The translations under genes were made by a program, and so were the position numbers. A stretch of 64,000 nt of DNA from NCBI RefSeq assembly GCF_002715865.1, contig NZ_CP017696.1, positions 1 through 64,000 on the forward strand, in the 5' to 3' direction. The notes under the pieces are model-generated. The model was not told the origin of the DNA. It saw nothing but the letters and a program-made list of their open reading frames with translations, and ran no database searches. Shown here one piece after another: positions 25,609-39,212 of this stretch. Each line of letters starts with the position of its first letter. Within the stretch, counting starts at the first letter, position 1. Source of the stretch: Bifidobacterium asteroides DSM 20089 (lineage in GTDB: Bacteria > Actinomycetota > Actinomycetes > Actinomycetales > Bifidobacteriaceae).

Positions 25609-26436
25609 TGTAGCAAGACTGCTCCACGGCAGGTAGGTCTCCAGTAGACCCTTGCGAGGAAGACACAACTGTGGCCCATAACGGCTGATGCGCAGACAAT
25701 CCATATGAAGTGTGCCTTTGACATCAAGAGGGCCGGTGGCAGGGTGATGGCACCGTCCTGGCCGTGCCCTGCACATATTCCGTGTGGAAAGGGGGAGGCC
25801 AGCCATATACCTATTTCCTCATAGCCTTCCAGGGAACCTTTCTTGTAAGTAGTTTTGGCGTCGCCCCTGGTTCCGCGTTCGAAACGGTCGAAGGCCTGCA
25901 GATAGATTAGTGATTTGACTAATGCCAGTCGGGAAAAGCCGAAGATGATGGCCGGGACCTGCAGGAAGGACGCGGAGTAGATGAGGAAAGCGAAGACCAC
26001 GTAGATGGCCAGGAGGCAGATGGCGTAGAACGGGGTACCTATGGGAATCTCGACACAGAGTTTGAAAACCCAGTCTGTATTGGTGTAGCGGGATTGTAGG
26101 GGGTAGAAGAACTTGTATGAAAGGACTAGGAGCGCGATCCTGATGATCAGGATGATGAGGGCAAGGTAGGTCACTACCCCCCCCCCCCCAGCGTCGCGTG
26201 GATGATGAATGCGATGATGGACTGTCTGACCACCCGGACGAGGAGTTGCGGGTACTGCCTGCAGAGGAGGATGTCCTTGTGGTTCTCATCGCAAGACCGC
26301 GCTGTAGAGGGCGCTGCGGGCGAGGCCTATCGAGACCAGGGGTAATGCAGGTGAAAACGAAGAACAGGTTCAGGGTTGTGAATCTGAGTAGGGTGTTCAA
26401 GGAGAGTCAGAAGGGGCTTTCGAGGTTGAAGTGCAT
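25602..26436 (-). pseudogene. YesL-like (DUF624) membrane protein, broken
   Basis: The start at 26436 reads MHFNLESPF, then a TGA where Trp is expected, then LSLNTLLRFTTLNLFFVFTC. A frame change follows near 26340, another occurs at the C13 run (26177-26189), and the last 190 residues (TYLALIILIIRIALLVLSYK onward) are in one frame to 25602. DUF624 proteins are small membrane proteins found in LplB/YtcP-type sugar ABC operons. This one belonged with the decayed operon to its right. The nonsense change plus two shifts indicate real decay. Confidence 0.7.
26177..26189. repeat. C13 homopolymer inside the YesL-like pseudogene
   Basis: Thirteen consecutive C on the plus strand (G13 in the coding strand of the pseudogene), between codons for a Thr/Leu/Gly-type segment and VTYLALII. 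Length change here would switch the frame of the downstream two thirds of the gene. Confidence 0.95.
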
Positions 26437-26843
26437 GATCCGCCTTTCCTTCCTGCAGGGTTGGCGACGTGCAGGCAGGCGAATGGGCCCGGCCATCCCG
26501 TGTAGCGCTGTCTCCTGCTCGGTCGGCTATAGGATAATCGTCTTTGACCAACCCTGGACAATCTGTCTGATTAATGGGCTGACAGTCCAATCCTGCCTCA
26601 TGTAGTGACATGCTTGGCAGCGGGCTGCGGTTTGACGGCTTAGTCAAATCGACGTACCAATCTATTTACAAATGTATAAATAAGACAACTATGATCTGCG
26701 CGGTGCCGAGACGTGGTAGAAATATGCGGTGCTGGCTGGTAATGCAAGGGAGCGGGCTTATGGGAAAAGACAGAAGGGCAGTATGTCAACTGTCGACATT
26801 CATTGAAAGCCACCCGGCGGCGTAAGACTAAACGCCAAGGGAC

Positions 26844-27642
26844 ATAAGCGGCAGGAAGAAACACAGCATCAACCTTTTCCTCTTGACCGTCCCCTTTCTG
26901 ATACTGTTCGTCCTCTTCAGTTACTATCCCCTGCTCGGCTGGGTATATGCCTTCTATGACTATCAGCCACCCATCCCACTGTCGGAGAGCGAGTTCGTCG
27001 GCTTCCAGTGGTTCAAGATGATTGTCCAGAACCCTGCCCAGTTGCACGCGGTCGTCCAGGTCCTGACCAACTCTGCCTAACTTCATCAGCCGGGTCCTGG
27101 TCCACGCCGCGGCATTCGCCATGTTTTCCTCCGTTGGCATGGTCAATGAGCTCTTGCAGAACCTCCGCCTGATTTCATAGCCTATCCATTTCCTGGATTC
27201 CGACAGCGGGGCCTACATCAAGATGCTCCTGTGGAGCCTGTGGAAGGGTCTGGGCTGGGGATCGATCCTCTACCTGGCCGTCATATCCGGCATCGACCCC
27301 GAACTCTACGAGGCCGCCAGGCGGATGGAGCCAGCCGCTTCCAGCAGATCATCTATGTTACGGTCCTGTAGCTCATACCCACCTACCCAGTAATGCCGAT
27401 GCTGAGCGTCTCCAACTTCCTCAGCAACGGGATGGACCAGTACTTCGTCTTTCCGCAACACCTTCAACCTCAAGCACATCCAGGTGCTTGGCCTCTACGT
27501 CTACAACACGGGCATGGGCGAGAACAGCCTCTCTCTGGCTGCAGCCAAATCCATGCTGAAATTCTTGGTCAGTGTGGTCCTCCTGTTCCTGGTCAATTGG
27601 GCCTCGAAGCGGAACCGTGGCGAGTCAATCATCTGGGTGTGA
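26844..27642 (+). pseudogene. LplB-type sugar ABC permease, decayed
   Basis: The pieces, in order, are SINLFLLTVPFLILFVLFSYYPLLGW, VGFQWFKMIVQNP, FISRVLVHAAAFAMFSSVG, HFLDSDSGAYIKMLLWSLWKGLGWGSILYLA, the EAA-like loop DPELYEAARRM and the end FLVNWASKRNRGESIIWV. They lie in different frames with TAG stops near 27179 and 27370 where Gln codons are expected, and with missing bases near 27075, 27335 and 27450. No start codon survives. Its next homologue is the intact permease at 34094. It was the first gene of an importer operon that is now dead. Confidence 0.8.
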
Positions 27643-27656
27643 GGGGAAAACAACCA

Positions 27657-28520
27657 TGAGAGACAGCATGACAATCGAATCGGAGGGCATCTCTCCTCTC
27701 TTGCAGCGGACCAGGGATAAGAAGATGTTCAATGTCTTCAACATCGCCTTCTTCGTCCTCTTCGCCTTCATCTGCGTCTACCCGTTCTACTACCTGATCA
27801 TCAACAGCATCTCCGACAACACCCTGAGTGCCGCCGGCAAGATAGCCGTTCTGCCCAAGGGAATCAACTGGAGTAACTATGTGGAGGTCTTCAAACAGGA
27901 GTGCCTGGGCACAGCCGCCATGGTCTCCCTGGGACGTACCGTGATCGGTGCCGCCCTGACCGTACTGGCCAGTGCCTTCCTGGGCTTCCTTTCACCCAGG
28001 CGAGCATGTGGCACCGTAAGTTCTGGTATCGCTTCATCATCATGACCATGTATTTCAATGCTGGTCTGATCCCCCTGTTCATCGTGATGAAGAACCTGGG
28101 TCTGACCAACAACTTCTGGGTGTACGTTCTGCCGACCATCGTGCACCTTTCAACATCATCCTGGTGAAGACCTGCATCGAGTCCATCCCCTCCTCCTTCC
28201 CGGAGGCGGCCGAAGTGGACGGCGCCGGCACTCTGACGGTCTTCTTCAAAATCGTCTTGCCCATCTGCACGCCGATTCTGGCCACGGTGACCATCTTCTC
28301 GGCCGTGGGGCAGTGAAACTCCTTCCAGGACACTTTGATATACATGACCGATTCAAAGCCTTACTTCCTGTAGTACTTGCTCTATCAGTACATCAACCAG
28401 GTAAGCTCTCTGGCCACCCAGCAGACCCCGTCGTCCATCAGGATGACTGTCTCGGTCATCGTGGTCCTACCCATCCTCTTTATCTATCCGCTCTTCCAGC
28501 GTTACTTCGTCAAGGAGTGA
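27657..28520 (+). pseudogene. YtcP-type sugar ABC permease, decayed
   Basis: A good start at ATG 27657 leads into MFNVFNIAFFVLFAFICVYPF and NSISDNTLSAAGKIAVLPKG, matching the second permease of LplB/YtcP systems. The frame is lost near 27990 and again near 28145. In-frame TGA (28315, Trp expected) and TAG (28372, Gln expected) follow. The EAA loop FPEAAEVDGAGTLTVFFKIVLP and the terminal LFIYPLFQRYFVKE are still readable. It follows the first permease remnant by 15 bases. The intact paralogue is at 35132. Confidence 0.85.
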
Positions 28521-28909
28521 TCGAGAGGAGGTGCAATCCCGCCACCGTACGGGTCTGATTCCACGCGGTGGCCAGGAAGTGTTCATGTCGATTCATCAAG
28601 GAGGACAAATCGATGAGAGATGCAAGGCCGACAGTGATCCCTTCAGTCCGCAGAAAATCAACCACTGGGTTGACCATCACCGCTGCCGAAGTCGTCGGCG
28701 GTGGCAGATTATCCGACCGCAAGTCGGCGGGCAGGGCCTGGAGGCCGGAAGCGTGGACCGAGGAGGATTACGCAGTCCGTTGAGACAATCGTATGAGCCA
28801 TAAGGACGTAAGCGGAAGTCGGTACCATCCCGATGATCTGCGGTCCGCCGGCCTGCAGAAAGTGACAGGACGGGTCCGGGAGCCGGACAGTGTCTGGAAA
28901 GGGGAAACA
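28521..28909. other. Region between permease and binding-protein remnants
   Basis: About 390 bases. One 71-codon plus-strand frame (28568-28783, starting MARKCSCRFIKEDKS) has no recognised domain. The last part holds the GGGGAAAC region before the lipoprotein start. In the intact operon the corresponding gap is occupied by the YesL-like gene. Confidence 0.35.
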
Positions 28910-29990
28910 ATGCAAGCCAAGAAGCTGGCGGCGGTGGCTGCCGCTGTCTTAACCATGTCCATGGCCTTGGCGGGCTGTGGCGTCCGAGACAACTCTGCCA
29001 ACGAGAAGGACGACGGGTCGCTCATGCAGGTGGAAGTCTTCGATTGGCTGGCAAACTACCAGGGCATCCAGAAAGGCTGGTTCGCCAAGACGGTCAAGGA
29101 CACAAGTTCAACTCCAAGTTGAACATTGTGGCCCCCAATGTGGTGGACGGGGGCAACTCCCTCTTCAATACCCGTTCAACAGCCGGGAACCTGGACGACA
29201 TCATCATCGCCGGCTCTGGTCAGGCGCCAAGCCGGTCAAGGTCCACCTGATTGAGGACATGACGCCGTACCTGAAGAATGCCAAGAAAATCAAGAAGTAT
29301 AAGTCCGTCACCGATGCCCTCAACAAGGCGGCCGGGCAAACCGGCGGGGTCTGGAGCCTGCCCGGGTCGGTCACTTCTCTGCCGCCCCACGGAGACCTCC
29401 GAGGGGCCGGAGCCCACTTTCGGCCCTTATGCGCGGTCTGACATCCACAAGGAAATAGGCTATACCAGGATTGCCGACCTGGATGACCTGGTCAAGGCCC
29501 TCTAGTTCCTTTAGCAAGGCCAACCAGATGGGCCTGGCCGACCCCCAGTCCTCCACCCAGTGCTACGACTCCAGCATGTGGAAGTCCACCATCGGCCGGT
29601 TCAGTAACTCCGCCCTGGACAAGGATCGGTCCGAGCATATGGACAGGGCCAAGACCTCCATGCAGTGTCTGGAGAAAGCGAGCAAGCTCATGATCGCCCC
29701 AGGCTCCAGCTTCACCCAGTCCGATGAATCTTCTCAGATCTCCACCTTGCGCGGTCAGGTGAAGACCGAAATCACCAACACCTCCTGGAAGGCAGTCTTC
29801 GCCAAGGAAGACAACGAGTTCAACGGTCTTATGGATGAAATACGCTCCAAGGTCGACGGACTGGGCTTCAAGCAAGTCCTGAATGTGGACATGAAGAACG
29901 CCAAGGATCAGAACACGGCCCATGTCAACGTCAAGAAACGGCTCACCAACTGCAGGCGTCGGAAAGCAGCTGATTCCACGCCAGACGGTA
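28910..29990 (+). pseudogene. Sugar-binding lipoprotein of the decayed ABC operon
   Basis: ATG 28910 starts a signal peptide with lipobox LAGC (AVLTMSMALAGCG), then VEVFDWLANYQGIQKGWFAK. The reading continues through three or more frames: KLNIVAPNVVDGGNSLFNTR, HLIEDMTPYLKNAKKIKKY, GPEPTFGPYARSDIHKEIGY and a long last segment to VNVKKRLTNC. Frame changes fall near 29103, 29222, 29395 and 29505, with a TAG near 29503. Family members capture oligosaccharides outside the membrane for an LplB/YtcP importer. The intact paralogue is at 36926. Confidence 0.8.
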
Positions 29991-30220
29991 GGGCAGGGCA
30001 GCCTTGGCGACCTCATGCATGTACTTCTTGGGAGCGTGTAGCCGGGCGGTGATCAACCACCTTCCGTCGCGCTCCCTTGCCATGCCGGTGGCACGACGGT
30101 TGGTTCCCCGGTCACCGCTTATGAATGCGGCCTCGGTCCCGATTAGGAGCCATGCCGCGGATGGCGGAGAAAAAATAGAGAAGGGAAACGGGGTGCGAGA
30201 GCGGCATGCTCCCATTTGGA

Positions 30221-30708
30221 TAGAATTCGAGGATCGTCTTCTGCGGGGACTCGGTCACCGATGACAACCGTGGTTGCAAGGCCGTCCCCGTCAGCTGGGA
30301 TTCCTTCGGCGGCGGCTATGCCAACCCGGTCCACGCCCTTCTTGCTACTGCCTACCACGACAGGGAACTTATGATTTTGAACGACGAGGTCAGCGGGGAT
30401 GACATCGAGTTGATGGCAGCCCGATGGGACATGGACGTGCTCGACATGAAGCCCAACAGGAATGATTCGATGAGGGCCATGGTCGACCGGTATGCCGAGG
30501 TGGCCAGGCAGGTGGCTGACAACCACGGGGACACCTACGTGGACGACCAGGCCGCCATGGACGACTTTCTTGAGAAACTGAGTAGCTATATACTTTAGCG
30601 TGGATTGTTGCAACCTCAGAATCGAGGGGCATATGCTGGTGGCCAGGATCTGGCTCCAGGCCGTCGGCTTCGACTGGGAGAGGACCACATTCGATGACGA
30701 AAAGTGAG
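30221..30708 (+). pseudogene. SGNH/GDSL esterase remnant
   Basis: The frame near 30224 reads IVFCGDSVTDDNRGC, the catalytic GDS block I. SWDSFGGGYANPVHALLATAY, SGDDIELMAARWDMDVLDMKP, MVDRYAEVARQVADNH and finally GHMLVARIWLQAVGFDWER follow, ending at TGA 30706-30708. The GxND block and the DxxH block are missing through small deletions (near 30462 and 30590), and the frame shifts near 30616. The stop overlaps the fucosidase start, so the two once formed an operon. Homologues are acetyl or acyl esterases acting on plant glycans. Confidence 0.8.
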
Positions 30709-32217
30709 CAGGAGCCCCGTCCCCTGCGTGAAGACGTGGTTGGGGCCGACGACCTTTCGCGGGTGGATGACGAGATCAGCCGTGGCGCTTTCAAGGCCGA
30801 TTGGGCCTCTTTGTGCGCCATGGAGCCCCCCACTTGGTTTACCGATGCCAAGTTCGGCATTTTCACCCACTGGGGCTTGTACAGCGTTCCCGCCTATCAT
30901 AACGAGTGGTACTCGCGCAACATGTACATCAAGGGGTACCCGGAGTTCGACCACCATGTGAAGACCTACGGACCCCAGAAAGAGTTCGGCTACAAGGACT
31001 TCATCCCTATGTTCAAGGTGGAACGTTTCGATCCCGACCAATGGCTGGATCTTTTTCGCCGGGCTGGCGCCCGCTACTACATGCCCGTGGCTGAGCATCA
31101 CGATGGATTCCAGATGTACCGCAGCGACCTGTCAGAATGGAACGCCTTCGACAAGGGGCCACACCGCGACCTGATCGGTGAACTGCGACGGGCCACTTTG
31201 GATCAGGGCCTTCACTTCGCCCTGTCCGACCACCGGGCTGAGCACTGGTGGTTCATGGGCCACGGGCAGGAGTTTGATAGCGACGTGTGTCAGCCAATGA
31301 AGAAGGGCGACTTCTACTGGCCCGCCATGCCCGAGCCTGACGACCAGGATCTCTTTAGCAAGCCCTATCCCACCAAGGAGTACCTGGACGACTGGCTCCT
31401 GCGGGTCTGCGAGGTGATCGACGCTTATCGGCCCGAACTCCTCTACTTCGATTGGTGGGTTCAGCACGAGGCGTTCAAGCCCTATTTGCAGCGCTTGGCC
31501 GCATACTATTACGACCGGTCCGTCGAGTGGGGGGTTCCGACCGCTATCTGTTACAAGATGGATAGCATGGCCTGGGGTTCAGGCATTGTGGATGTGGAAC
31601 GCGGCGGCTTCGCCAACCCCACCCCCTTCGTCTGGCAGACGGACACTGCCATCGCCCGTAACTCCTGGTGCCATACGACCACCCTGGACCACAAGTCGGT
31701 GGCTGAAATCCTGGCCGCGCTCCTCGACGCGGTCAGCAAGAACGGCAATCTCATGCTCAACGTGGGTCCTTGCGCCGACGGATCCATCGATCCTGAGGAG
31801 GCGAGGATGTTGGAGTCCATCGGTCGGTGGATGGATGTGAACGGGGAGGGGATCTACGGGTCCCGCCCCTGGTGGGTCGCCCAGGAGGGCCCTACCCACC
31901 CGGCAGCGGGATCCTTCGCGGATCAGACCGAGGCCGTCTTCACCCCCGAGGATTTCCGGTTCACCTCGGCGTCAGGCGCCATCTACGCCTACCAGCTCAA
32001 GCCGTCCGCAGACGGACGGGCCCTGATTAAGGCTTTCGCCCCACGGGGAGAGGAGGGACCGATATTTCAGGGGATTGTCCGACAGGTCAGCCAGTTGGGT
32101 GCAGGACCGGTCAGTTATGAGCTGACAGACCGGGGGCTGGAGGTTCAGGGCCTCAAGGACCCCGCTGGGACCATGGCCACCGGCCTGCCCCTGGGCATCC
32201 GGATCGATGTGGAGTGA
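30694..32217 (+). CDS. GH29 alpha-L-fucosidase
   Basis: 507 residues, no signal peptide, so intracellular. Family landmarks are AKFGIFTHWGLYSVPAYHNEWYS, YYMPVAEHHDGFQMY, DHRAEHWW, the nucleophile Asp in LLYFDWWVQHE and the late LMLNVGPCADGSIDPEE. The catalytic acid is not certain from sequence alone. The start ATG 30694 overlaps the end of the esterase remnant. It is the only intact gene in the 25.6-33.9 kb graveyard; its transporter and companion enzymes are dead. It would release L-fucose from fucosylated oligosaccharides if these still enter through another importer. Confidence 0.9.
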   Translation: MTKSEQEPRPLREDVVGADDLSRVDDEISRGAFKADWASLCAMEPPTWFTDAKFGIFTHWGLYSVPAYHNEWYSRNMYIKGYPEFDHHVKTYGPQKEFGYKDFIPMFKVERFDPDQWLDLFRRAGARYYMPVAEHHDGFQMYRSDLSEWNAFDKGPHRDLIGELRRATLDQGLHFALSDHRAEHWWFMGHGQEFDSDVCQPMKKGDFYWPAMPEPDDQDLFSKPYPTKEYLDDWLLRVCEVIDAYRPELLYFDWWVQHEAFKPYLQRLAAYYYDRSVEWGVPTAICYKMDSMAWGSGIVDVERGGFANPTPFVWQTDTAIARNSWCHTTTLDHKSVAEILAALLDAVSKNGNLMLNVGPCADGSIDPEEARMLESIGRWMDVNGEGIYGSRPWWVAQEGPTHPAAGSFADQTEAVFTPEDFRFTSASGAIYAYQLKPSADGRALIKAFAPRGEEGPIFQGIVRQVSQLGAGPVSYELTDRGLEVQGLKDPAGTMATGLPLGIRIDVE

Positions 32218-32302
32218 AATCCCTACAGGGTTTCCGTCACCGGCCCGAGGACATAGTGACCGACAATAACAAGGAAAGATAGGAAAACAATAAGTTCCTC
32301 AA

Positions 32303-32314
32303 GGGGGGGGGGGG
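32303..32314. repeat. G12 homopolymer
   Basis: Twelve G about 85 bases after the fucosidase stop, followed by a frame reading EWLVRDGFDIK. That short coding remnant was not identified. Confidence 0.95.
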
Positions 32315-32400
32315 AATGGCTGGTGCGCGACGGTTTCGACATCAAAATATGCGGCTAATATTTACCGTGCAGACGTCGAAGAGAAGAGGCTGATTCTCTA

Positions 32401-32413
32401 CCCCCCCCCCCCC
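32401..32413. repeat. C13 homopolymer followed by G5
   Basis: Thirteen C immediately followed by GGGGG (32414-32418). The bases before it read YRADVEEKRLILYP in one frame, the end of an unidentified coding remnant that begins near 32313. Confidence 0.95.
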
Positions 32414-32589
32414 GGGGGACAATCAGGGACCCCGGCTTGATTGAGGTCGGCGAAGGTCTGGTCGACTTGGTCGTCCCTCTTGAAGCGCTCAAGGAGGGCG
32501 TGTGCGGGTTTCTTATTGATGATTCCCGCCTTGGCGGGGTTATCTGGGTCCTCCCACTTGTCTTCCTTATATCGACTCCGAGAACGACC

Positions 32590-33098
32590 TGCTCAGGGAT
32601 GGTCATGGAGCAGGCCTACGACTCCTCTGAGGCCAACCAGTTCATCTATACGACCTGTACGGGGACGGATGCGGACGGGCACAACCTCCTCTTCTTTCCC
32701 TGATTCTGCGCCAACAATGTCATTTTTAATGCCCGCAGGCCGGAGATGGTCAAGCTCTTCTCTATCCTGAACGGAGAGGCTCTCAGCCCTTCGCACCCAG
32801 CCCACCGCTATTTCATAGGTCGCAACCAGAAGTTCTGGCAGACCATCAAGTCACTGAACTGGTGCCTGCCCAGAGGGTACGACCTGGGCCGCTCCCACCC
32901 ATGTGGATGCTGTGCGTGTCGGCCATGGATGGCTTGCAGTACCGCTGGCTAGCGGACGGGTCAGCCGATCTGGTGGTCGAGTGGCTTGCCTTCTCCGACG
33001 AGCTCTTCTCCCCGGAGAAGTGGCATGGGTTTATGGACCCCAAAGACATCGACCCGGACTCAGAAGAATGCCTGGCCTCCTTCAGCCTTATCACGGGT
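32590..33098 (+). pseudogene. TetR-family regulator, C-terminal remnant
   Basis: Readable segments are QAYDSSEANQFIYTTCTGTD, RPEMVKLFSILNGEALSPSH followed by PAHRYFI, then MDGLQYRWLADGSADLVVEW. The order and spacing match the ligand-binding domain of TetR-like regulators (HPAHxYF and DGLQxxWL are common there). No DNA-binding helix-turn-helix remains, and the parts lie in different frames with a stop near 32701. It ends against a G10 run. Function is lost. Confidence 0.55.
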
Positions 33099-33108
33099 GG
33101 GGGGGGGG
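33099..33108. repeat. G10 homopolymer
   Basis: Ten G (preceded by GGGT) at the end of the TetR remnant. Confidence 0.95.
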
Positions 33109-33254
33109 CAGTCGGTTCAGGACCGGCGGCTTCGACCAGACGACCCCTGCGGTCGAACAGCGGTCACCGAGGATGTCCACCGGCCGGAGAGCAGCAAATG
33201 GCCGCAGGCGAGAAAAGCGCCATGAATATGAAAGAAATGAAAGAGAGCATCAGC

Positions 33255-33620
33255 ATGGGTCAAGAGGGCAAGTTCATATTCCCGTCCGATTTCATCTAGG
33301 GAACGGCCACGGCCGCCTTTCAGGTGGAAGGGGCAGCACATGGGTATGGTAGGACGGATTCCATCTGGGGCACATGAGGACCTCGCCGCCAAGAAGAGGG
33401 CCGACCTCTTCACCGACGAGGTCTTTCTGGCCCATGCCGGAAGGTTCCTTATCCGGAAAATGCCAGTCAGGCGGGGGGGAGGGGGGCACTGACCGGTGCT
33501 TCGTGCAGGATGGTGACCTGGAGGCCATCCATCCGGTCTGCGGTCGGCAACGGCTCCGTGTAATCTGTGGGCCGCCCGCCGACCCTGACCGTTTAATCAG
33601 GTCGGCAGGAGGGTGACTCT
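33255..33620 (+). pseudogene. GH1 beta-glucosidase remnant
   Basis: ATG 33255 starts GKFIFPSDFI, then a TAG where Trp is invariant, then GTATAAFQVEGAAHGYGRTD and SIWG, the hallmark GH1 N-terminus. A large internal deletion joins this to AKKRADLFTDEVF, then PYPENASQAG in another frame and DLEAIHPV, which correspond to a region around two thirds along a GH1 enzyme. A G7-A-G6 tract (33473-33486) interrupts the last part. The catalytic glutamates are gone. Confidence 0.75.
33473..33486. repeat. G7-A-G6 tract in the GH1 remnant
   Basis: Two G runs separated by one A at 33480. An originally longer pure run interrupted by substitution would give this form. Confidence 0.9.
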
Positions 33621-33700
33621 TCCCGTCGGCCTGATTGATGTGTTTGGTTTCCGGATTTCTGGACCCCTCATATCTGGCTTGGCGTTCACGTGTCAATTTG

Positions 33701-33920
33701 TCAGAACCCGTAAGGGACCTGAAAGGTCATCCATAGGGACAAGAAGAGGAGGGAGGCCAGCACGATGAGGCCTGGGATGATCGCGTACCAGCATCGATAG
33801 GTGGTCCGTCCTGCAATACGCACGAGCCAGTCGGCCTTGTAGCAGATGGCCGGCACCATCCAAGGAAGGATGACCCGCCTAAGTGGAGATGCTCCTGGTG
33901 GTGACCGGGTTCGTCGCTTT
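33701..33920 (-). pseudogene. C-terminal remnant of a second protein O-mannosyltransferase gene
   Basis: The minus strand reads VILPWMVPAICYKADWLV, a hydrophobic stretch and MTFQVPYGF, ending at TGA 33701-33703. It aligns with the last 60 residues of the intact PMT at 39392 (VILPWMILAICYVANWL and MPIPYDF), with clear divergence. Upstream homology fades after about 33920. It is oriented like the intact gene and lies on the left edge of the intact ABC operon. Confidence 0.65.
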
Positions 33921-33977
33921 CCGCAGACGGACGCTTTCCATGTACACCTACAGGCGTCAAGGATTGAATTGACTTTT

Positions 33978-33993
33978 TTTACAACGTTAGATA
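33978..33993. promoter_or_regulatory. Candidate LacI operator upstream of the intact ABC operon
   Basis: TTTACAACGTTAGATA matches 13 of 16 positions of the consensus TTTCTAACGTTAGAAA derived from the 57-60 kb sites, centred on CG at 33985-33986. It is about 100 bases before the permease start. Confidence 0.6.
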
Positions 33994-34093
33994 AACTAAC
34001 TTTTGTCATGACGGCACAGTTGCCGAATGTGGATTCCTTCAGGTTCAAGGATTGAGCCGGATGGGAGCAATACTAGTCATAGAAGGGCTGAGC

Positions 34094-35113
34094 ATGAACG
34101 GAACCGATGCAGAAGTCGACCGTCAGGTCAAGACTTCCGGTAAAACCGCGCGCCTCGCCTCCTCCAAACCCGCCAAGGCACATAAGGTCCTTTCGTCGCG
34201 GGGGGGGGGGGGGGGGTATAAATCTTCCCTGAAGCGCTGTTGGCCCTTATGGGTCATGGTGCTTCCCGCCATGCTGTTCGTGGCCGTATTCAACTACGGC
34301 CCTATGTACGGCATTCAACTGGCGTTCAGGAAGTATGATTTCACCAAGGGCCTCACCGGAGGCGACTGGGTGGGCTTCCAGTATTTCAAGCAGTTCTTCG
34401 CCTCACCTATGTTCAAGCCCCTCATGGTCAACACGATCAGGATCAGTCTGTGGACTCTGGTCATGGGCTTCATCGCCCCCATCATCCTGGCTCTCCTGAT
34501 CAACCAGATCCATTCCACCAAGGTCAAGAGCTTCGTACAGACCATCACCTACATGCCGCACTTCATATCTACGGTGGTGATTGTGGCCATGATCAACCTT
34601 TTCCTGACCCCCTCCACAGGTCTGCTCACCCGTTTCCTTGCCTTCCTCCACATCGACAACGCCAACTTCATGGGCAATCCCAGCACCTTCACGCCCATCT
34701 ACTGGATCAGCGAGGTCTGGCAGCATATGGGCTGGAACTCGATCATCTACCTGGCCGCCCTCAGTTCGGTCGACGTGGCCCTCTACGAGGCAGCCAAGAT
34801 GGACGGGGCAGGCCGTTTTCAGCTTATTCGTTACATCGATATACCCGCCATCATGCCCACGGCCGGCGTCCTCCTGATCCTGAACATGGGCGGTGTGCTC
34901 AACGTAGGCTTCGAAAAGGTCTTCCTTATGCAGAACACCCTGAACCTGCCAGCCTCCGAGGTCATATCGACCTACACCTACAAGATCGGCATCCTGCAGA
35001 ATCAATTCTCGTATTCCACAGCCATCGGCCTGTTCAACATGCTCATCAACTTCGTCTTCCTGGTCATCGCCAATCAGATCTCCAGGAGGGTGTCTCACAC
35101 CGGCATCTTCTGA
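34094..35113 (+). CDS. LplB-type sugar ABC transporter permease containing a G17 tract
   Basis: 339 residues from ATG 34094, preceded by AGAAGGG. A 35-residue hydrophilic N-terminus ends in the codons of a G17 run (SSRGGGGGYKSS). Six membrane segments follow, beginning MVLPAMLFVAVFNYGPMYG. The EAA loop, which contacts the ATPase, is YEAAKMDGAGRFQLIRYIDIP. The protein is in frame as sequenced. It is the first gene of a permease-permease-YesL-lipoprotein operon; no ATPase gene is present, so a shared MsmK/MsiK-type ATPase elsewhere would be needed. Gain or loss of one G would abolish it. Confidence 0.9.
   Translation: MNGTDAEVDRQVKTSGKTARLASSKPAKAHKVLSSRGGGGGYKSSLKRCWPLWVMVLPAMLFVAVFNYGPMYGIQLAFRKYDFTKGLTGGDWVGFQYFKQFFASPMFKPLMVNTIRISLWTLVMGFIAPIILALLINQIHSTKVKSFVQTITYMPHFISTVVIVAMINLFLTPSTGLLTRFLAFLHIDNANFMGNPSTFTPIYWISEVWQHMGWNSIIYLAALSSVDVALYEAAKMDGAGRFQLIRYIDIPAIMPTAGVLLILNMGGVLNVGFEKVFLMQNTLNLPASEVISTYTYKIGILQNQFSYSTAIGLFNMLINFVFLVIANQISRRVSHTGIF
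34200..34216. repeat. In-frame G17 tract in the permease gene
   Basis: Seventeen consecutive G, encoding part of Arg and five Gly at about codons 36-41, ahead of the first membrane segment. Tracts of this length slip readily during replication. Confidence 0.95.
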
Positions 35114-35131
35114 GGGGAGGAAGACAACAAA

Positions 35132-36070
35132 ATGGAAAACACGCAAGACATGGCACGCTCCGGGGCCCGCAGGGTCAGACGGCTTATCGGGGGGAAGACA
35201 CTGGGAGACTGGCTGGCTGACCTGATCATCGTCCTCATCCTGCTGCTGATAGTGGCCTCCATCCTCTACCCAATCTGGTTCATCATCATCGCTTCGGTCT
35301 CTGATCAGACCCTGGTCAACACAGGCCAGGTCACCTGGATTCCCAAGGGCATTTCGGCCTACGGCTTCCAGCAGATTCTCGGGGATGACAGGATCTGGAA
35401 CGGCTACCGGAATACGTTGATCTACACTGTGGCAGGCACCGTCTTGAACCTGGTGGTCACCATGCCGGCGGCCTTCGCCCTCTCCCGACCCGAGTTCAAG
35501 TGGCGCCGCCTGATCATGCTCTTCTTCACAATTACCATGTTCGTCAACGGCGGTCTGATCCCGACCTACCTCCTGTACAAACAGTTGGGCCTCCTGGACT
35601 CCTGGGCGGTCTTCGTCATTCCCCAGGCCCTGAATGTCTACAACCTGATTATCGCCCGGTCCTTCTTCGAGAGCTCCATCCCCGAGGACCTCCACGATGC
35701 CGCTCAGATCGACGGGGTGGGGTACTTCCGCTACTTTACGCGGATCGTCATCCCCCTGAGTTCCGCCATCATCGCCGTCATCGGCCTGTACTACCTGGTG
35801 CAGCACTGGAATGACTTCTTCACCGGCTTGGTCTACATACGCACCTACGACAAGCAACCCCTGCAGATCGTCCTGCGTGACATCCTCCTGTCCAACCAGG
35901 CTTTCCAGGGGGGGTCGGGCTCGACGGCCGGTGCCGGATACGGGCAGGAGTTCGCTGACCAGATCAAATACGGGGTGATCATCGTCTCCACCCTCCCTCT
36001 CCTGGTCATCTACCCCTTCATACAGAAGTACTTCAACAAGGGGGTCATGATTGGGGCGATCAAAGGCTGA
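35132..36070 (+). CDS. YtcP-type sugar ABC transporter permease
   Basis: 312 residues, six membrane segments, starting 19 bases after the first permease behind GGGGAGGAAG. Family marks are the first helix with LILLLIVASILYPIWFIIIA, SDQTLVNTGQVTWIPKGIS, the EAA-like loop IPEDLHDAAQIDGVGYFRYF and the C-terminal YPFIQKYFNKGVMIGAIKG. It pairs with the permease at 34094 to form the membrane channel for oligosaccharide uptake. It is the intact paralogue of the pseudogene at 27657. Confidence 0.92.
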   Translation: MENTQDMARSGARRVRRLIGGKTLGDWLADLIIVLILLLIVASILYPIWFIIIASVSDQTLVNTGQVTWIPKGISAYGFQQILGDDRIWNGYRNTLIYTVAGTVLNLVVTMPAAFALSRPEFKWRRLIMLFFTITMFVNGGLIPTYLLYKQLGLLDSWAVFVIPQALNVYNLIIARSFFESSIPEDLHDAAQIDGVGYFRYFTRIVIPLSSAIIAVIGLYYLVQHWNDFFTGLVYIRTYDKQPLQIVLRDILLSNQAFQGGSGSTAGAGYGQEFADQIKYGVIIVSTLPLLVIYPFIQKYFNKGVMIGAIKG

Positions 36071-36157
36071 CTGCACCGGACCGTCCTACTGACGGGGAGC
36101 AAAGACAGGTCGGATATGGGCCGGACAGCCATGGCTGTACCCGGGAAAGGAGGAAGC

Positions 36158-36829
36158 ATGCAAAGATTCGCCCTCGGATACGAGCAGGCGGCCCGCCTGG
36201 TCCTGGTGACCTTCATCTCCAACCTGGCCCTCCTGGCACACACCATCATGGGGCTTGTCCTGGTAGGCTTCTTCCCCTCCCTGGCCGCAACCTGTGGGGT
36301 TTTCAGGAGGTGGCTGACAGACGAGGACAGGGAGTGGGGGATCGCCCAGACCTGGCGGACCTTCCACCGTCTGTGGAAGAGGGAACTCAGGGGGGCCAAC
36401 ATCTTCGGTTGGGTACAGGCCGCCATCTGGGCCCTCCTGCTGGGGGATTATTGGATCGTCAACTTTCACCGGACCGGCGGGATCGGGGTTTTCGTCTCCG
36501 GAATCCTCTTCTGCCTCATGGTCTTCCTGACTTTGGCCACTGCCCTGTCCTGGGTTCTTTTCGCCCTTTATGACCAGGGGGTCGGCTGGATTCTGGTCAG
36601 GTCGGTCCAGATGGTTCTGGCGCGTCCCTGGATGAGTGTGGTCCTGGCTTTCGGTCTGGCCCTTATGGCCTTTGCCTGCTGGTCCTGGCCCGGCCTGGCC
36701 GTGGTCTTCGGGCCTGCCCTGCCCTGCCTCCTGTCGTCGTCGGCGGTCTGGTTCTACGGCAGGCTCGACGGTTTTTCCGTCCGGATGCGCCGGGGCGCAC
36801 AGGGCGGGATGGCAACGAAAGGAGAGTGA
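36158..36829 (+). CDS. YesL-like (DUF624) membrane protein
   Basis: 223 residues with about five hydrophobic segments. AAAGGAGG (36146-36153) fixes ATG 36158. Sequences such as LVLVTFISNLALLAHTIMGL, FFPSLAATCGVFRRWL and TWRTFHRLWKRELRGANIFG fit DUF624, a family seen next to LplB/YtcP/LipO-type transporters. Its role is not known, possibly assisting transporter assembly. It lies between the second permease and the lipoprotein gene and should be co-transcribed. Confidence 0.75.
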   Translation: MQRFALGYEQAARLVLVTFISNLALLAHTIMGLVLVGFFPSLAATCGVFRRWLTDEDREWGIAQTWRTFHRLWKRELRGANIFGWVQAAIWALLLGDYWIVNFHRTGGIGVFVSGILFCLMVFLTLATALSWVLFALYDQGVGWILVRSVQMVLARPWMSVVLAFGLALMAFACWSWPGLAVVFGPALPCLLSSSAVWFYGRLDGFSVRMRRGAQGGMATKGE

Positions 36830-36925
36830 CGGATCCGTCATTAAGTACACCGCCTGGACCGGTGCGATCTGCGCATGGGCCCGGGGTAAGCAGAGAAGTT
36901 CACTGTCGAACAGGAGGAGCGAATC

Positions 36926-38548
36926 ATGAGTTCGTTCGGGAAACACAGGTTCAGGAACCGTCTGGTGGCCATAGGGGCCATGACGATGGCCATGTCGATG
37001 ATGCTGGCCGGTTGCGGCGGTTCCAAGGAGCCCACCACCAATGCCCAGGGCCAGCCGATCATCACGATAGCCGTAGCCAAGCACCCTCTGACCAAGAAGA
37101 TATCCAAGATGAAGTGGCCCAAGCAGCTGGAGAAGGAGTGTGGCTGCGAAATCCATTGGCAGGAGGCGAGCTCGGACTGGGACCAGAAGAAGCAGGCCAT
37201 GCTGGCGGCCGGCGATGTGCCCGACCTCATTCTCAAGGGGATCAACCTGGCGGACATAGCCACTTATAGCACGCTCTTCGAGGATCTGAGCCAGGACCTG
37301 GACAAGATGCCGAATGTCAAGAAGATGTTCAATACCGACCCCACGGCCAAGCAGGTGGTCTCCATGCCGGACGGGAAGATCTACATCCTGCCCGCCGTCA
37401 AGAAGGGTATCTGGCCCAAGGCCGTCAGCCACATGTACATCAACAAGCAGTGGCTGGACACGCTGGGCCTGAAGGTGCCGACCACCTGGGATGAGCTTGA
37501 GGAGGTGCTCAAGGCCTTCAAGACCAAGGACCCCAATGGGAACGGGCAGGCCGACGAGATCCCCTTTGACTTCCAGTCTCCCGGTACCGGGGGTTTCGGT
37601 GACTATCAGCCGACCCTCCTGCTGGGGAGCCTGGGCATCGTGACCTCGGTAGGTGGCGGCCAGGGCTTCTATGCCGACAAGGGCAAGGTCAAGTCCTTCC
37701 TGACCGATGACCGTTACAAGGAACTGATCCAGTACCTCAACAGGCTCTGGGGGGAGGGGTTGATCGCCAAGGACGCCTTCACCCACGACTACTCCAAGTC
37801 CCAGTCCACCGCACGCGGCCAGGGCGATAAGGCCAAGATCGGCTTCACCTGGGGGTGGACGGCCTCCGACCGCTTTGGCGACAAGTTGGCCGGTCAGTAT
37901 GTGGCCATGCCCCAGCTGAAGGCCAAGGCCGATCAGAACCCGGATGAGTTGGTCTATGACACCCAGGGGGACCGGTTGGACTACAGCGAGTTCGCGCTTG
38001 TGGTCTCGGCCAAGAGCAAGAACAAGGAGACCGCCATCAAGGTGGCTAATGCCTTCTATGGGCAGGACATGTCCCTGCAGATGCTCTGGGGTGATCTGGG
38101 CACGGATGTGCAGAAGACAGGGCCGGACTCCTATAAGGTCCTGCCGCCTGCTGACTCCACCAAGGACCCCTCCACCTGGAAGTGGACGGAGACCCTGGCT
38201 GATGACTCTCCCTACTGGATACGTCCGAATCTCAAGATCGAGCTGCCGGCGGATCTCGAGGAGGTCAAGGGCCAGGAGCAGCCCCTTGAGCCGGCCTTGG
38301 CCCATGTGGACCCCAAGTTGGATGTCATCCCGGGTGCCCTCAAGTATTCCTCCGAGGACCAGACCACCATGCAGAACAACAACACGACCCTGATGAACAC
38401 CGCCATGACCAAGTTCGCCCAGTGGGTGACCAAGGGTGGTGTGGACCAGGAGTGGGACAACTATGTGGAGACCCTGAAAAAGGCCAATTTGGATCAGAAC
38501 ATCAAGTTGGTGCAGAAGGCCTACGACCAGTACTACTCCAAGAACTGA
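36926..38548 (+). CDS. Oligosaccharide-binding lipoprotein (ABC transporter)
   Basis: 540 residues. The signal peptide ends in the lipobox MLAGC (about residue 28), so the protein is tethered to the outer face of the membrane. A family-1-type solute-binding fold follows, with the EF-hand-like TKDPNGNGQADEIPFDF calcium-loop motif common in LipO-like proteins and WDELEEVLKAF. AGGAGGAG precedes ATG 36926. As last gene of the operon it delivers substrate to the two permeases. Regulation through the operator at 33978 would link it to the arabinan-type hydrolases. The substrate is inferred. Confidence 0.9.
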   Translation: MSSFGKHRFRNRLVAIGAMTMAMSMMLAGCGGSKEPTTNAQGQPIITIAVAKHPLTKKISKMKWPKQLEKECGCEIHWQEASSDWDQKKQAMLAAGDVPDLILKGINLADIATYSTLFEDLSQDLDKMPNVKKMFNTDPTAKQVVSMPDGKIYILPAVKKGIWPKAVSHMYINKQWLDTLGLKVPTTWDELEEVLKAFKTKDPNGNGQADEIPFDFQSPGTGGFGDYQPTLLLGSLGIVTSVGGGQGFYADKGKVKSFLTDDRYKELIQYLNRLWGEGLIAKDAFTHDYSKSQSTARGQGDKAKIGFTWGWTASDRFGDKLAGQYVAMPQLKAKADQNPDELVYDTQGDRLDYSEFALVVSAKSKNKETAIKVANAFYGQDMSLQMLWGDLGTDVQKTGPDSYKVLPPADSTKDPSTWKWTETLADDSPYWIRPNLKIELPADLEEVKGQEQPLEPALAHVDPKLDVIPGALKYSSEDQTTMQNNNTTLMNTAMTKFAQWVTKGGVDQEWDNYVETLKKANLDQNIKLVQKAYDQYYSKN

Positions 38549-38840
38549 CGGATGCAGGCGTACCCTGGGGTCCTCCAGTGATTCAAGGAGAGTCCCCAGG
38601 GTCCGTCGGACCCCGGGGCCACCAACTACACGATATGGTCCCTGGGAGGGCCGATGAGGCGGCCGGGTTGGCGACAAACCGCCGTCTGAGTTCAGGGCTG
38701 CCTCAGACCATCCGTCAAAGCTCGGCTGTTTCTGTACACGGGTCTATGGCCGTCAATAGTCCGGATTCTCCGGTTCTTTTCTGGTTCCCCTCCGGTTGGA
38801 CACTACCTATCCGATGCAGACTGAGGGCATGCATGGCATT

Positions 38841-38863
38841 CCCCCCCCCCCCCCCAAAAAAAA
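38841..38863. repeat. C15-A8 double homopolymer
   Basis: Fifteen C followed directly by eight A, in non-coding DNA between the lipoprotein gene and the metG remnant. Confidence 0.95.
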
Positions 38864-38969: not shown

Positions 38970-39212
38970 GTCATGACCGGCAATCTTGGGAAGGTGATCC
39001 AGGAGCTCTTCCGCCAGTACCGGGGCCAACCTGGCTTTGCTGAAGACCCGCAGCGCCTGGCGCAGCAATGTGCTCAACTTCTCCCTGGGGCTGTTCAAGG
39101 AGGTCAAGCCGCGGGTCATCACGCGCGACATCGACTGGGGCATTCCCGTACCCGTGGACGGCTGGGTCGATGCCGTCATCGGCTATTTGTCGGCATCCAT
39201 CGAATGGGCTCT
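38970..39212 (+). pseudogene. metG: Internal fragment of methionyl-tRNA synthetase gene
   Basis: This segment closely matches 43710-44232 of the intact metG, including [31 protein letters not shown] and [13 protein letters not shown]. Relative to metG it lacks two internal blocks: 255 bases between copies of GCCAA (43760 and 44015), and 33 bases between copies of CGA (44158 and 44191). It also has a one-base insertion near 39020 that shifts the frame. Start, HIGH region, KMSKS loop and 3' half are absent. It lies 4.5 kb upstream of the real gene in the same orientation. Confidence 0.9.

What the first reader, a model, noticed from the sequence alone, without database searches (positions are those of the whole stretch)
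26177..38863. Seven long G/C homopolymer sites confined to a 13-kb decaying transport region
Runs of C13 (26177), G12 (32303), C13 (32401), G10 (33099), G7AG6 (33473), G17 (34200) and C15A8 (38841) all fall between 26 and 39 kb; I saw none comparable in the rest of the window. Such tracts are contingency loci in other bacteria, and G-tract slippage has been reported for bifidobacterial pilus genes. Confinement to the sugar-transport graveyard suggests a mutational or selective property of this DNA.
Basis: partly seen in the sequence, partly recalled or inferred. Interest (0 to 1): 0.75.

Follow-up and report, generated by a model that had tools for sequence, protein, structure and literature searches.

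The report
Slippery G-tracts switching bee-symbiont genes
Long runs of G in a bee-gut type Bifidobacterium look like slippage switches for a sugar-transporter gene and a family of surface proteins, while most of the runs in the flagged stretch look like by-products of slippage in broken genes.

Summary
The runs are real and at the stated places, but not confined there. The single-contig genome (2.19 Mb) has 36 G/C runs of 9 or more: 6 in 26-39 kb, a real local cluster (P about 5e-5), and 30 elsewhere. A-runs of 11+ are absent. All 27 genus genomes searched have NucS and none has MutS; mycobacterial NucS does not repair small indels (PMC11551767).

I see two kinds of tract. (1) Switch-like tracts in genes. 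In the window this is G17 at 34200, in the N-terminal tail of an ABC sugar permease. The same site is G11, G12 and G13 in three related species; two of four are in frame from the main starts, and the rest of the gene is under purifying selection in all four (dN/dS at most 0.07). Outside the window, nine RCC1-type surface genes carry such a tract near the N-terminus. (2) Tracts in decayed or intergenic DNA. At 33099, relatives' short G run in an intact tetR is G10 in this genome's broken copy.

Unexpected: in relatives, 41 of 54 surface-gene copies sit one G above the reading length. Switching within a culture is untested.

The parts
34200..34216 (+). G17 tract in the N-terminal tail of permease 1; candidate frame switch (in frame at 3n+2 from the starts at 34052, 34061 and 34094)
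   Evidence: orthologous G11, G12, G13
34052..35113 (+). ABC permease 1 (BPD_transp_1, UgpA/GlcT-like), open over the tract, 353 aa from the TTG at 34052
35132..36070 (+). ABC permease 2 (BPD_transp_1, UgpE/GlcU-like)
36116..36829 (+). DUF624 protein of the same gene set
36926..38548 (+). solute-binding protein (weak match to TIGR03850, below its cut-off)
33969..33997 (+). sigma-70-like promoter match upstream of permease 1 (TTGACT, 17, TAAACT)
   Evidence: similar sequence in three relatives by eye
33099..33108 (+). G10, local expansion in a broken tetR gene; relatives have GGGTGGGGAG or GGGTGGAGGA
   Evidence: intact relative ORFs matched TetR_N in 2 of 2 scanned
33473..33486 (+). G7AG6 in unaligned DNA after the remnant of a GH1 gene
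32303..32314 (+). G12 in unassigned DNA after the fucosidase
32401..32413 (-). C13 in unassigned DNA before the tetR remnant
26177..26189 (-). C13 (G13 on the minus strand) inside a broken, hydrophobic, unassigned coding remnant
   Evidence: no Pfam match
38841..38863 (.). C15A8, intergenic between convergent genes; C14 in G011 and G019, not found in G003
26721..28514 (+). decayed relatives of permease 1 (26721-27612) and permease 2 (27773-28514), matches spread over several frames

Best explanation
The organism tolerates long poly-G/C tracts because small slippage indels are probably not repaired: it has NucS, whose mycobacterial counterpart ignores such indels, and no MutS was found. In some genes the tract acts as a reversible frame switch: in the N-terminal tail of ABC permease 1 (G17, 34200), and near the signal peptide of RCC1-type surface proteins. 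A length of 3n+2 joins the start to the rest of the gene; at other lengths translation from the main start ends soon after the tract. In broken genes and much intergenic DNA, where little opposes slippage, short G runs grow without function, and this accounts for most of the flagged cluster. Shown: tract places, length differences between species, changed frames, purifying selection after the tract, broken neighbours, NucS present and MutS not found. Inferred: slippage in growing cultures, the phenotypes, and neutrality of the other tracts.
For: Orthologous permease tracts are G17/G11/G12/G13 in four species at dS 0.04-0.29, with in-frame and out-of-frame states, and 298 open codons with dN/dS 0.00-0.07 in 6 of 6 pairs. 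Nine RCC1-type genes of this genome have tracts near the N-terminus: 4 in frame, 4 out of frame with 1,152-1,207 open codons after the tract, 1 broken. Of 36 runs of 9+, 10 are in these genes and the permease; no other run was found inside a gene with family support, though small ORFs overlapping some runs were not scanned. G10 at 33099 grew in a broken gene. NucS 27 of 27, MutS_V 0 of 27. NucS of M. smegmatis does not repair 1-2 base indels (PMC11551767, passages). A closely similar switch is shown for B. breve pili (PMC9187656, passages).
Against: No reads or within-strain data: every length is an assembly consensus. In G019 and G003 an ATG 92-93 bases before the permease tract is in frame (333 residues), so 'off' may be only 'reduced'. 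Surface-gene tracts in relatives cluster at one length (G12 in 41 of 54 classified relative copies by recount), which free switching would not predict. Genome G008 has no G11+ run although NucS/MutS status is the same, so repair alone does not set tract number. The intergenic tract at 743837 is kept in all three relatives (C16/C10/C10/G11), so not all noncoding tracts are lineage-specific. Only one of five decayed-DNA sites (33099) has a direct before/after comparison.
Confidence: 0.72

Rival explanations
1. All seven window tracts are selected contingency loci.
For: One of them fits well; 38841 is conserved in 2 of 3 relatives; the cluster is above chance.
Against: 33099 lies in a gene with several other lesions; 26177 lies in a remnant with stops and frame changes besides the tract; 32303, 32401 and 33473 lie in DNA without an assignable open gene.
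Confidence: 0.06
2. The tract state does not set expression by DNA length alone: transcript slippage, ribosomal frameshifting or a second start gives some product at most lengths.
For: 41 of 54 relative RCC1 copies sit one G above the reading length; 22 of 28 classified leader tracts in G002 do too; a second ATG serves the permease in G019 and G003.
Against: In-frame copies do occur (8 of 54 in relatives, 3 of 7 classified by the motif here). In B. breve tract length decides joining of the two ORFs (PMC9187656, passages). The second permease ATG has no ribosome-binding site that I could see by eye.
Confidence: 0.14
3. The tracts, or their lengths, are assembly or sequencing artefacts.
For: Poly-G piles within tens of bases or near contig ends occur in some other genomes (G026, G124); nearly all G002 leader tracts are exactly G11; Penno et al. 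warn about annotated tract lengths.
Against: The permease tract is present at the same place in four separate assemblies; tracts here are single, with unique flanks, and 33099 aligns through its flanks.
Confidence: 0.05
4. This 13-kb DNA has its own hypermutable property.
For: Six of 36 runs in 12.7 kb.
Against: Thirty runs of 9+ lie elsewhere and 26 of 27 genus genomes have runs of 11+; much of this stretch is broken coding DNA, a simpler cause. Noncoding density could not be normalised without an annotated whole genome.
Confidence: 0.03

Closest known systems
G-tract ON/OFF switch of sortase-dependent pilus genes, Bifidobacterium breve UCC2003 (Penno et al. 2022, PMC9187656; passages seen)
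   Same: Intragenic G10-G12 tract between the secretion signal and the body of a sortase-anchored surface protein; length decides whether the two frames join; family Bifidobacteriaceae.
   Different: There two pilus loci, with slippage measured in culture and mice. Here a multicopy RCC1-type family and an ABC permease, longer tracts (up to G19), and no culture data. The passages found have no mention of asteroides; the authors say they know of other tracts in UCC2003 but give no detail.
RCC1-repeat, Listeria-Bacteroides-repeat, wall-anchored proteins of bee bifidobacteria (Bottacini-type report on PRL2011, PMC3447821; Ellegaard et al. 2015, PMC4449606; passages seen; author names partly recalled)
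   Same: Same domains, tandem arrays and copy number (19 copies; 7-24 per genome); here 42 Flg_new matches in about 20 genes.
   Different: In both main texts 'homopolymer', 'frameshift' and 'slip' occur 0 times. The tract near the signal peptide and the frame states are what is added here.
Homopolymeric-tract phase variation in mycobacteria (ESX-1 variants, PMC11898584; listing and start of abstract seen; NucS indel blindness, PMC11551767; passages seen)
   Same: Actinobacterial genome with NucS and slippage-prone tracts.
   Different: Other genes; here a multicopy surface family and a transporter.

Membership tests
Simple-sequence contingency (phase-variable) locus: permease tract 34200 | hypermutable simple repeat in a coding region where length sets the frame | tested here: met
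   G17 in ORF 34052-35113; other lengths end translation from the main starts 2-13 bases after the tract
Simple-sequence contingency (phase-variable) locus: permease tract 34200 | length differs between close relatives while the gene is conserved | tested here: met
   G17, G11, G12, G13; dN/dS 0.00-0.07 in 6 of 6 pairs; between species, not strains
Simple-sequence contingency (phase-variable) locus: permease tract 34200 | off state abolishes the product | tested here: inconclusive
   a second ATG is in frame in G019 and G003
Simple-sequence contingency (phase-variable) locus: permease tract 34200 | reversible length change within a clone, with a phenotype | not testable with these tools
   no reads, strains or cultures
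Simple-sequence contingency locus: window tract 33099 | tract in an otherwise functional gene or promoter | tested here: not met
   broken tetR with an insertion, a stop and a deletion relative to three relatives
RCC1-repeat surface proteins of bee bifidobacteria (nine tract genes outside the window) | Listeria-Bacteroides (Flg_new) repeats | tested here: met
   open frames with Flg_new matches at all nine loci, 406502 in two pieces
RCC1-repeat surface proteins of bee bifidobacteria (nine tract genes outside the window) | RCC1 repeats | tested here: met
   2 of the 9 scanned, both match (375159 and 288094); the other 7 not scanned for RCC1
RCC1-repeat surface proteins of bee bifidobacteria (nine tract genes outside the window) | signal peptide and C-terminal LPxTG-type anchor | tested here: inconclusive
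   hydrophobic leaders by a simple score and LPxAG-like ends with a hydrophobic stretch by eye; no dedicated predictor was run

The most novel reading that the evidence does not exclude
Bee-gut bifidobacteria run a large stochastic surface programme: many RCC1 beta-propeller wall proteins (and, in one related species, leucine-rich-repeat proteins) are held one G above their reading length as a cocked off state, so that loss of a single base turns on a few members per cell, while the same mechanism toggles sugar uptake.
Probability: 0.3. Interest if true: 0.75.

Novelty: new member of a known kind. Interest (0 to 1): 0.55.

Why it matters
If confirmed, a gut partner of the honey bee would carry a large set of slippage-switched genes resting on indel-blind repair. 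Cultured isolates with mostly out-of-frame surface proteins would then misrepresent the bacterium in the bee, and some annotated pseudogenes in these genomes would be switched-off genes. The genome also offers a direct contrast between tracts kept in genes and tracts that grew in broken DNA.

Tried and rejected
A palindrome over the promoter at 33986 looked like an operator of the lost TetR; it is not kept in three relatives, so I dropped it. Confinement of tracts to the flagged DNA was dropped after the census. G026's 84 runs were not used as biology, because some pile up within tens of bases or near contig ends; they remain in the genus totals. In G002 nearly all leader tracts are G11, and a sequencing effect cannot be excluded; it is used only as a parallel. 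Promoter roles of intergenic tracts (743837, 2071450) were not tested. Pfam found nothing in ten fragments of the decayed stretch and its surroundings; a differently framed 50-residue piece matched MetRS. tblastn with the window's own DUF624 protein and solute-binding protein found no significant copy in 25.5-34.0 kb. The mean-length comparison shows this genome at 13.9 for runs of 11+ against 11.0-13.5 in 24 others and 17.2 in G025; I could not separate biology from sequencing method.
Full report
OBSERVATION. The window is bases 1-64,000 of a single-contig genome of 2,190,368 bases. A census finds 36 G/C runs of 9 or more: 6 in the flagged interval (G7AG6 falls under the cut) and 30 elsewhere. 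Six of 36 in 12.7 kb is a real local excess (reached in 1 of 20,000 uniform placements), but 'confined' is wrong. A-runs of 11+: 0 here, 10 in the 27 genus genomes. G-runs of 11+: 33 here, 503 in the 27, with 26 of 27 genomes having any. In a draw of 151 genomes of the family, the genus has a median of 15 such runs against 2 in the best-represented other genus (74 genomes; Mann-Whitney P 1.6e-9). Some of these counts include poly-G piles that look like assembly errors.

HOST. An exact scan of named genomes for the surface-gene tract motif gave 47 stretches, all from Bifidobacterium records: asteroides (two strains), apousia, mellis, mizhiense, choladohabitans, polysaccharolyticum, sp. 7101 and sp. 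B4142. That these are bee-gut species is recalled, apart from what the two genome papers say. Matching contig lengths identify G011 as B. choladohabitans, G019 as B. mellis and G003 as sp. 7101. The species name of the window's own genome was not obtained.

THE SWITCH-LIKE SITE IN THE WINDOW. G17 at 34200 lies in the N-terminal tail of permease 1 (PF00528), the first of an open gene set: permease, permease, DUF624, and a solute-binding protein with a weak family match. The orthologous tract is G11 in G011, G12 in G019 and G13 in G003. From the starts at -148, -139 and -106, G17 and G11 read through. G12, and G13 with its 1-base upstream deletion, end 2 bases after the tract. The remaining 298 codons are open in all four, with dN/dS 0.00-0.07 in 6 of 6 pairs. 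Against a clean off state: in G019 and G003 an ATG 92-93 bases before the tract is in frame (333 residues); I saw no ribosome-binding site for it by eye.

THE OTHER WINDOW TRACTS. From 26.6 to 33.5 kb most of the sequence is decayed: relatives of both permeases are spread over several frames, and tetR and GH1 are broken here but open in three relatives (TetR_N and GH1 matches in 2 of 2 relatives scanned). The fucosidase at 30694-32217 is open. At 33099 relatives have GGGTGGGGAG or GGGTGGAGGA where this genome has G10, inside its broken tetR. This is the only site with a direct before/after comparison. For 26177, 32303 and 32401 no counterpart appears among 82 of the 85 tracts of three relatives, but their flanking DNA does not align in the fetched stretches; 33473 likewise lies in unaligned DNA. 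38841 is C14 in two of three relatives, between convergent genes. Growth by unrepaired slippage where selection is weak is the simplest reading; it is inferred for all but 33099.

WHY TRACTS PERSIST. NucS is found in 27 of 27 genus genomes and the MutS_V domain in 0 of 27. NucS of M. smegmatis does not repair 1-2 base indels (PMC11551767, passages); that this holds in Bifidobacterium is inferred. Repair status alone does not set tract number: G008 has the same status and no run of 11+. I did not test repair genes in the tract-poor genus.

ELSEWHERE IN THE GENOME. There are 42 Flg_new matches, by my grouping about 20 genes and one fragment. Nine loci have a G tract near the N-terminus: 375159, 625950, 1076517 and 288094 are in frame; 371087, 403754, 1068265 and 1072371 are not, yet keep 1,152-1,207 open codons after the tract; 406502 is broken and not classified. 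RCC1 repeats were confirmed by Pfam in the two tract genes scanned. The other 21 runs outside the window were not found inside a gene with family support; 30 neighbouring ORFs, including one non-tract gene pair near RCC1 loci, were scanned, but small ORFs overlapping some runs were not. The run at 1089344 lies at the joint of two ABC genes. Some noncoding tracts are kept between species, for example 743837 (C16/C10/C10/G11), 1873120 and 2071450 (each in 1 of 3 relatives).

ONE G TOO MANY. I collected 65 distinct RCC1-type tract copies from this genome and nine relatives, using a motif just after the tract; 61 could be classified, 4 could not. Here: 3 in frame, 3 needing one G less, 1 needing one more (288094 lacks the motif and is not counted). 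In relatives 41 of 54 need one G less, 8 are in frame and 5 need one more (P 2e-10 against one third; copies are related, so this overstates independence). G12 is found in 43 of 61. A general mutational equilibrium does not explain it well: in B. mizhiense 14 of 15 RCC1 tracts are G12, while its other 8 runs of 11+ average 14.1 (arithmetic). In G002, another species of the genus, 28 of 35 runs of 9+ in 20 fetched stretches could be classified as leader tracts, 27 of them G11; 22 are one above the reading length, 4 two above, 2 in frame. Of seven G002 proteins scanned, four have RCC1, two LRR and one Flg_new only. A culture-selected off state, transcript slippage, concerted evolution of the copies or, in G002, a sequencing effect remain possible.

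LITERATURE. RCC1 families of bee bifidobacteria are known (PMC3447821, PMC4449606; passages). G-tract pilus switching in B. breve is known (PMC9187656; passages). Searches for asteroides with phase variation, bifidobacteria with RCC1, bee gut with phase variation, and honeybee/Bifidobacterium/homopolymer terms listed no paper whose title or abstract start reports the present switch. Only open-licence papers were searched, and the listings were capped.

VERDICT. The tracts are real and locally enriched, but not confined. One is a likely phase-variable transporter switch; most of the others in the flagged stretch are probably by-products in dead DNA. The larger result is the tract-bearing surface family outside the window.

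Noticed in passing
window 39061-39210 (+): Remnant of a methionyl-tRNA synthetase gene (PF09334, E 4e-9 over 50 residues) just beyond the C15A8 tract; whether an intact copy exists elsewhere was not looked for.
   Followed up: partly
G002, e.g. L214, L217, L220, L221: A related species with 47 G11+ runs: leader tracts inside the signal peptide of RCC1- and LRR-type surface proteins, nearly all exactly G11 and mostly one above the reading length.
   Followed up: partly
G026 C89:83629-83747 and C34:142-213; G124 C1:523134-523314: Piles of poly-G runs within tens of bases, likely assembly artefacts that inflate tract counts.
   Followed up: no
   Followed up: no
G000:C1:743837-743852 (L039): Intergenic C16 between tsaD and an arabinofuranosidase gene, kept as C10/C10/G11 in three relatives; a candidate regulatory tract.
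   Followed up: no
L031-L053 and RCC1 loci of relatives: The short sequence after the tract (reading RQTPRVA) is shared by RCC1 genes whose leaders differ strongly, suggesting exchange of leaders or selection on this junction.
   Followed up: no
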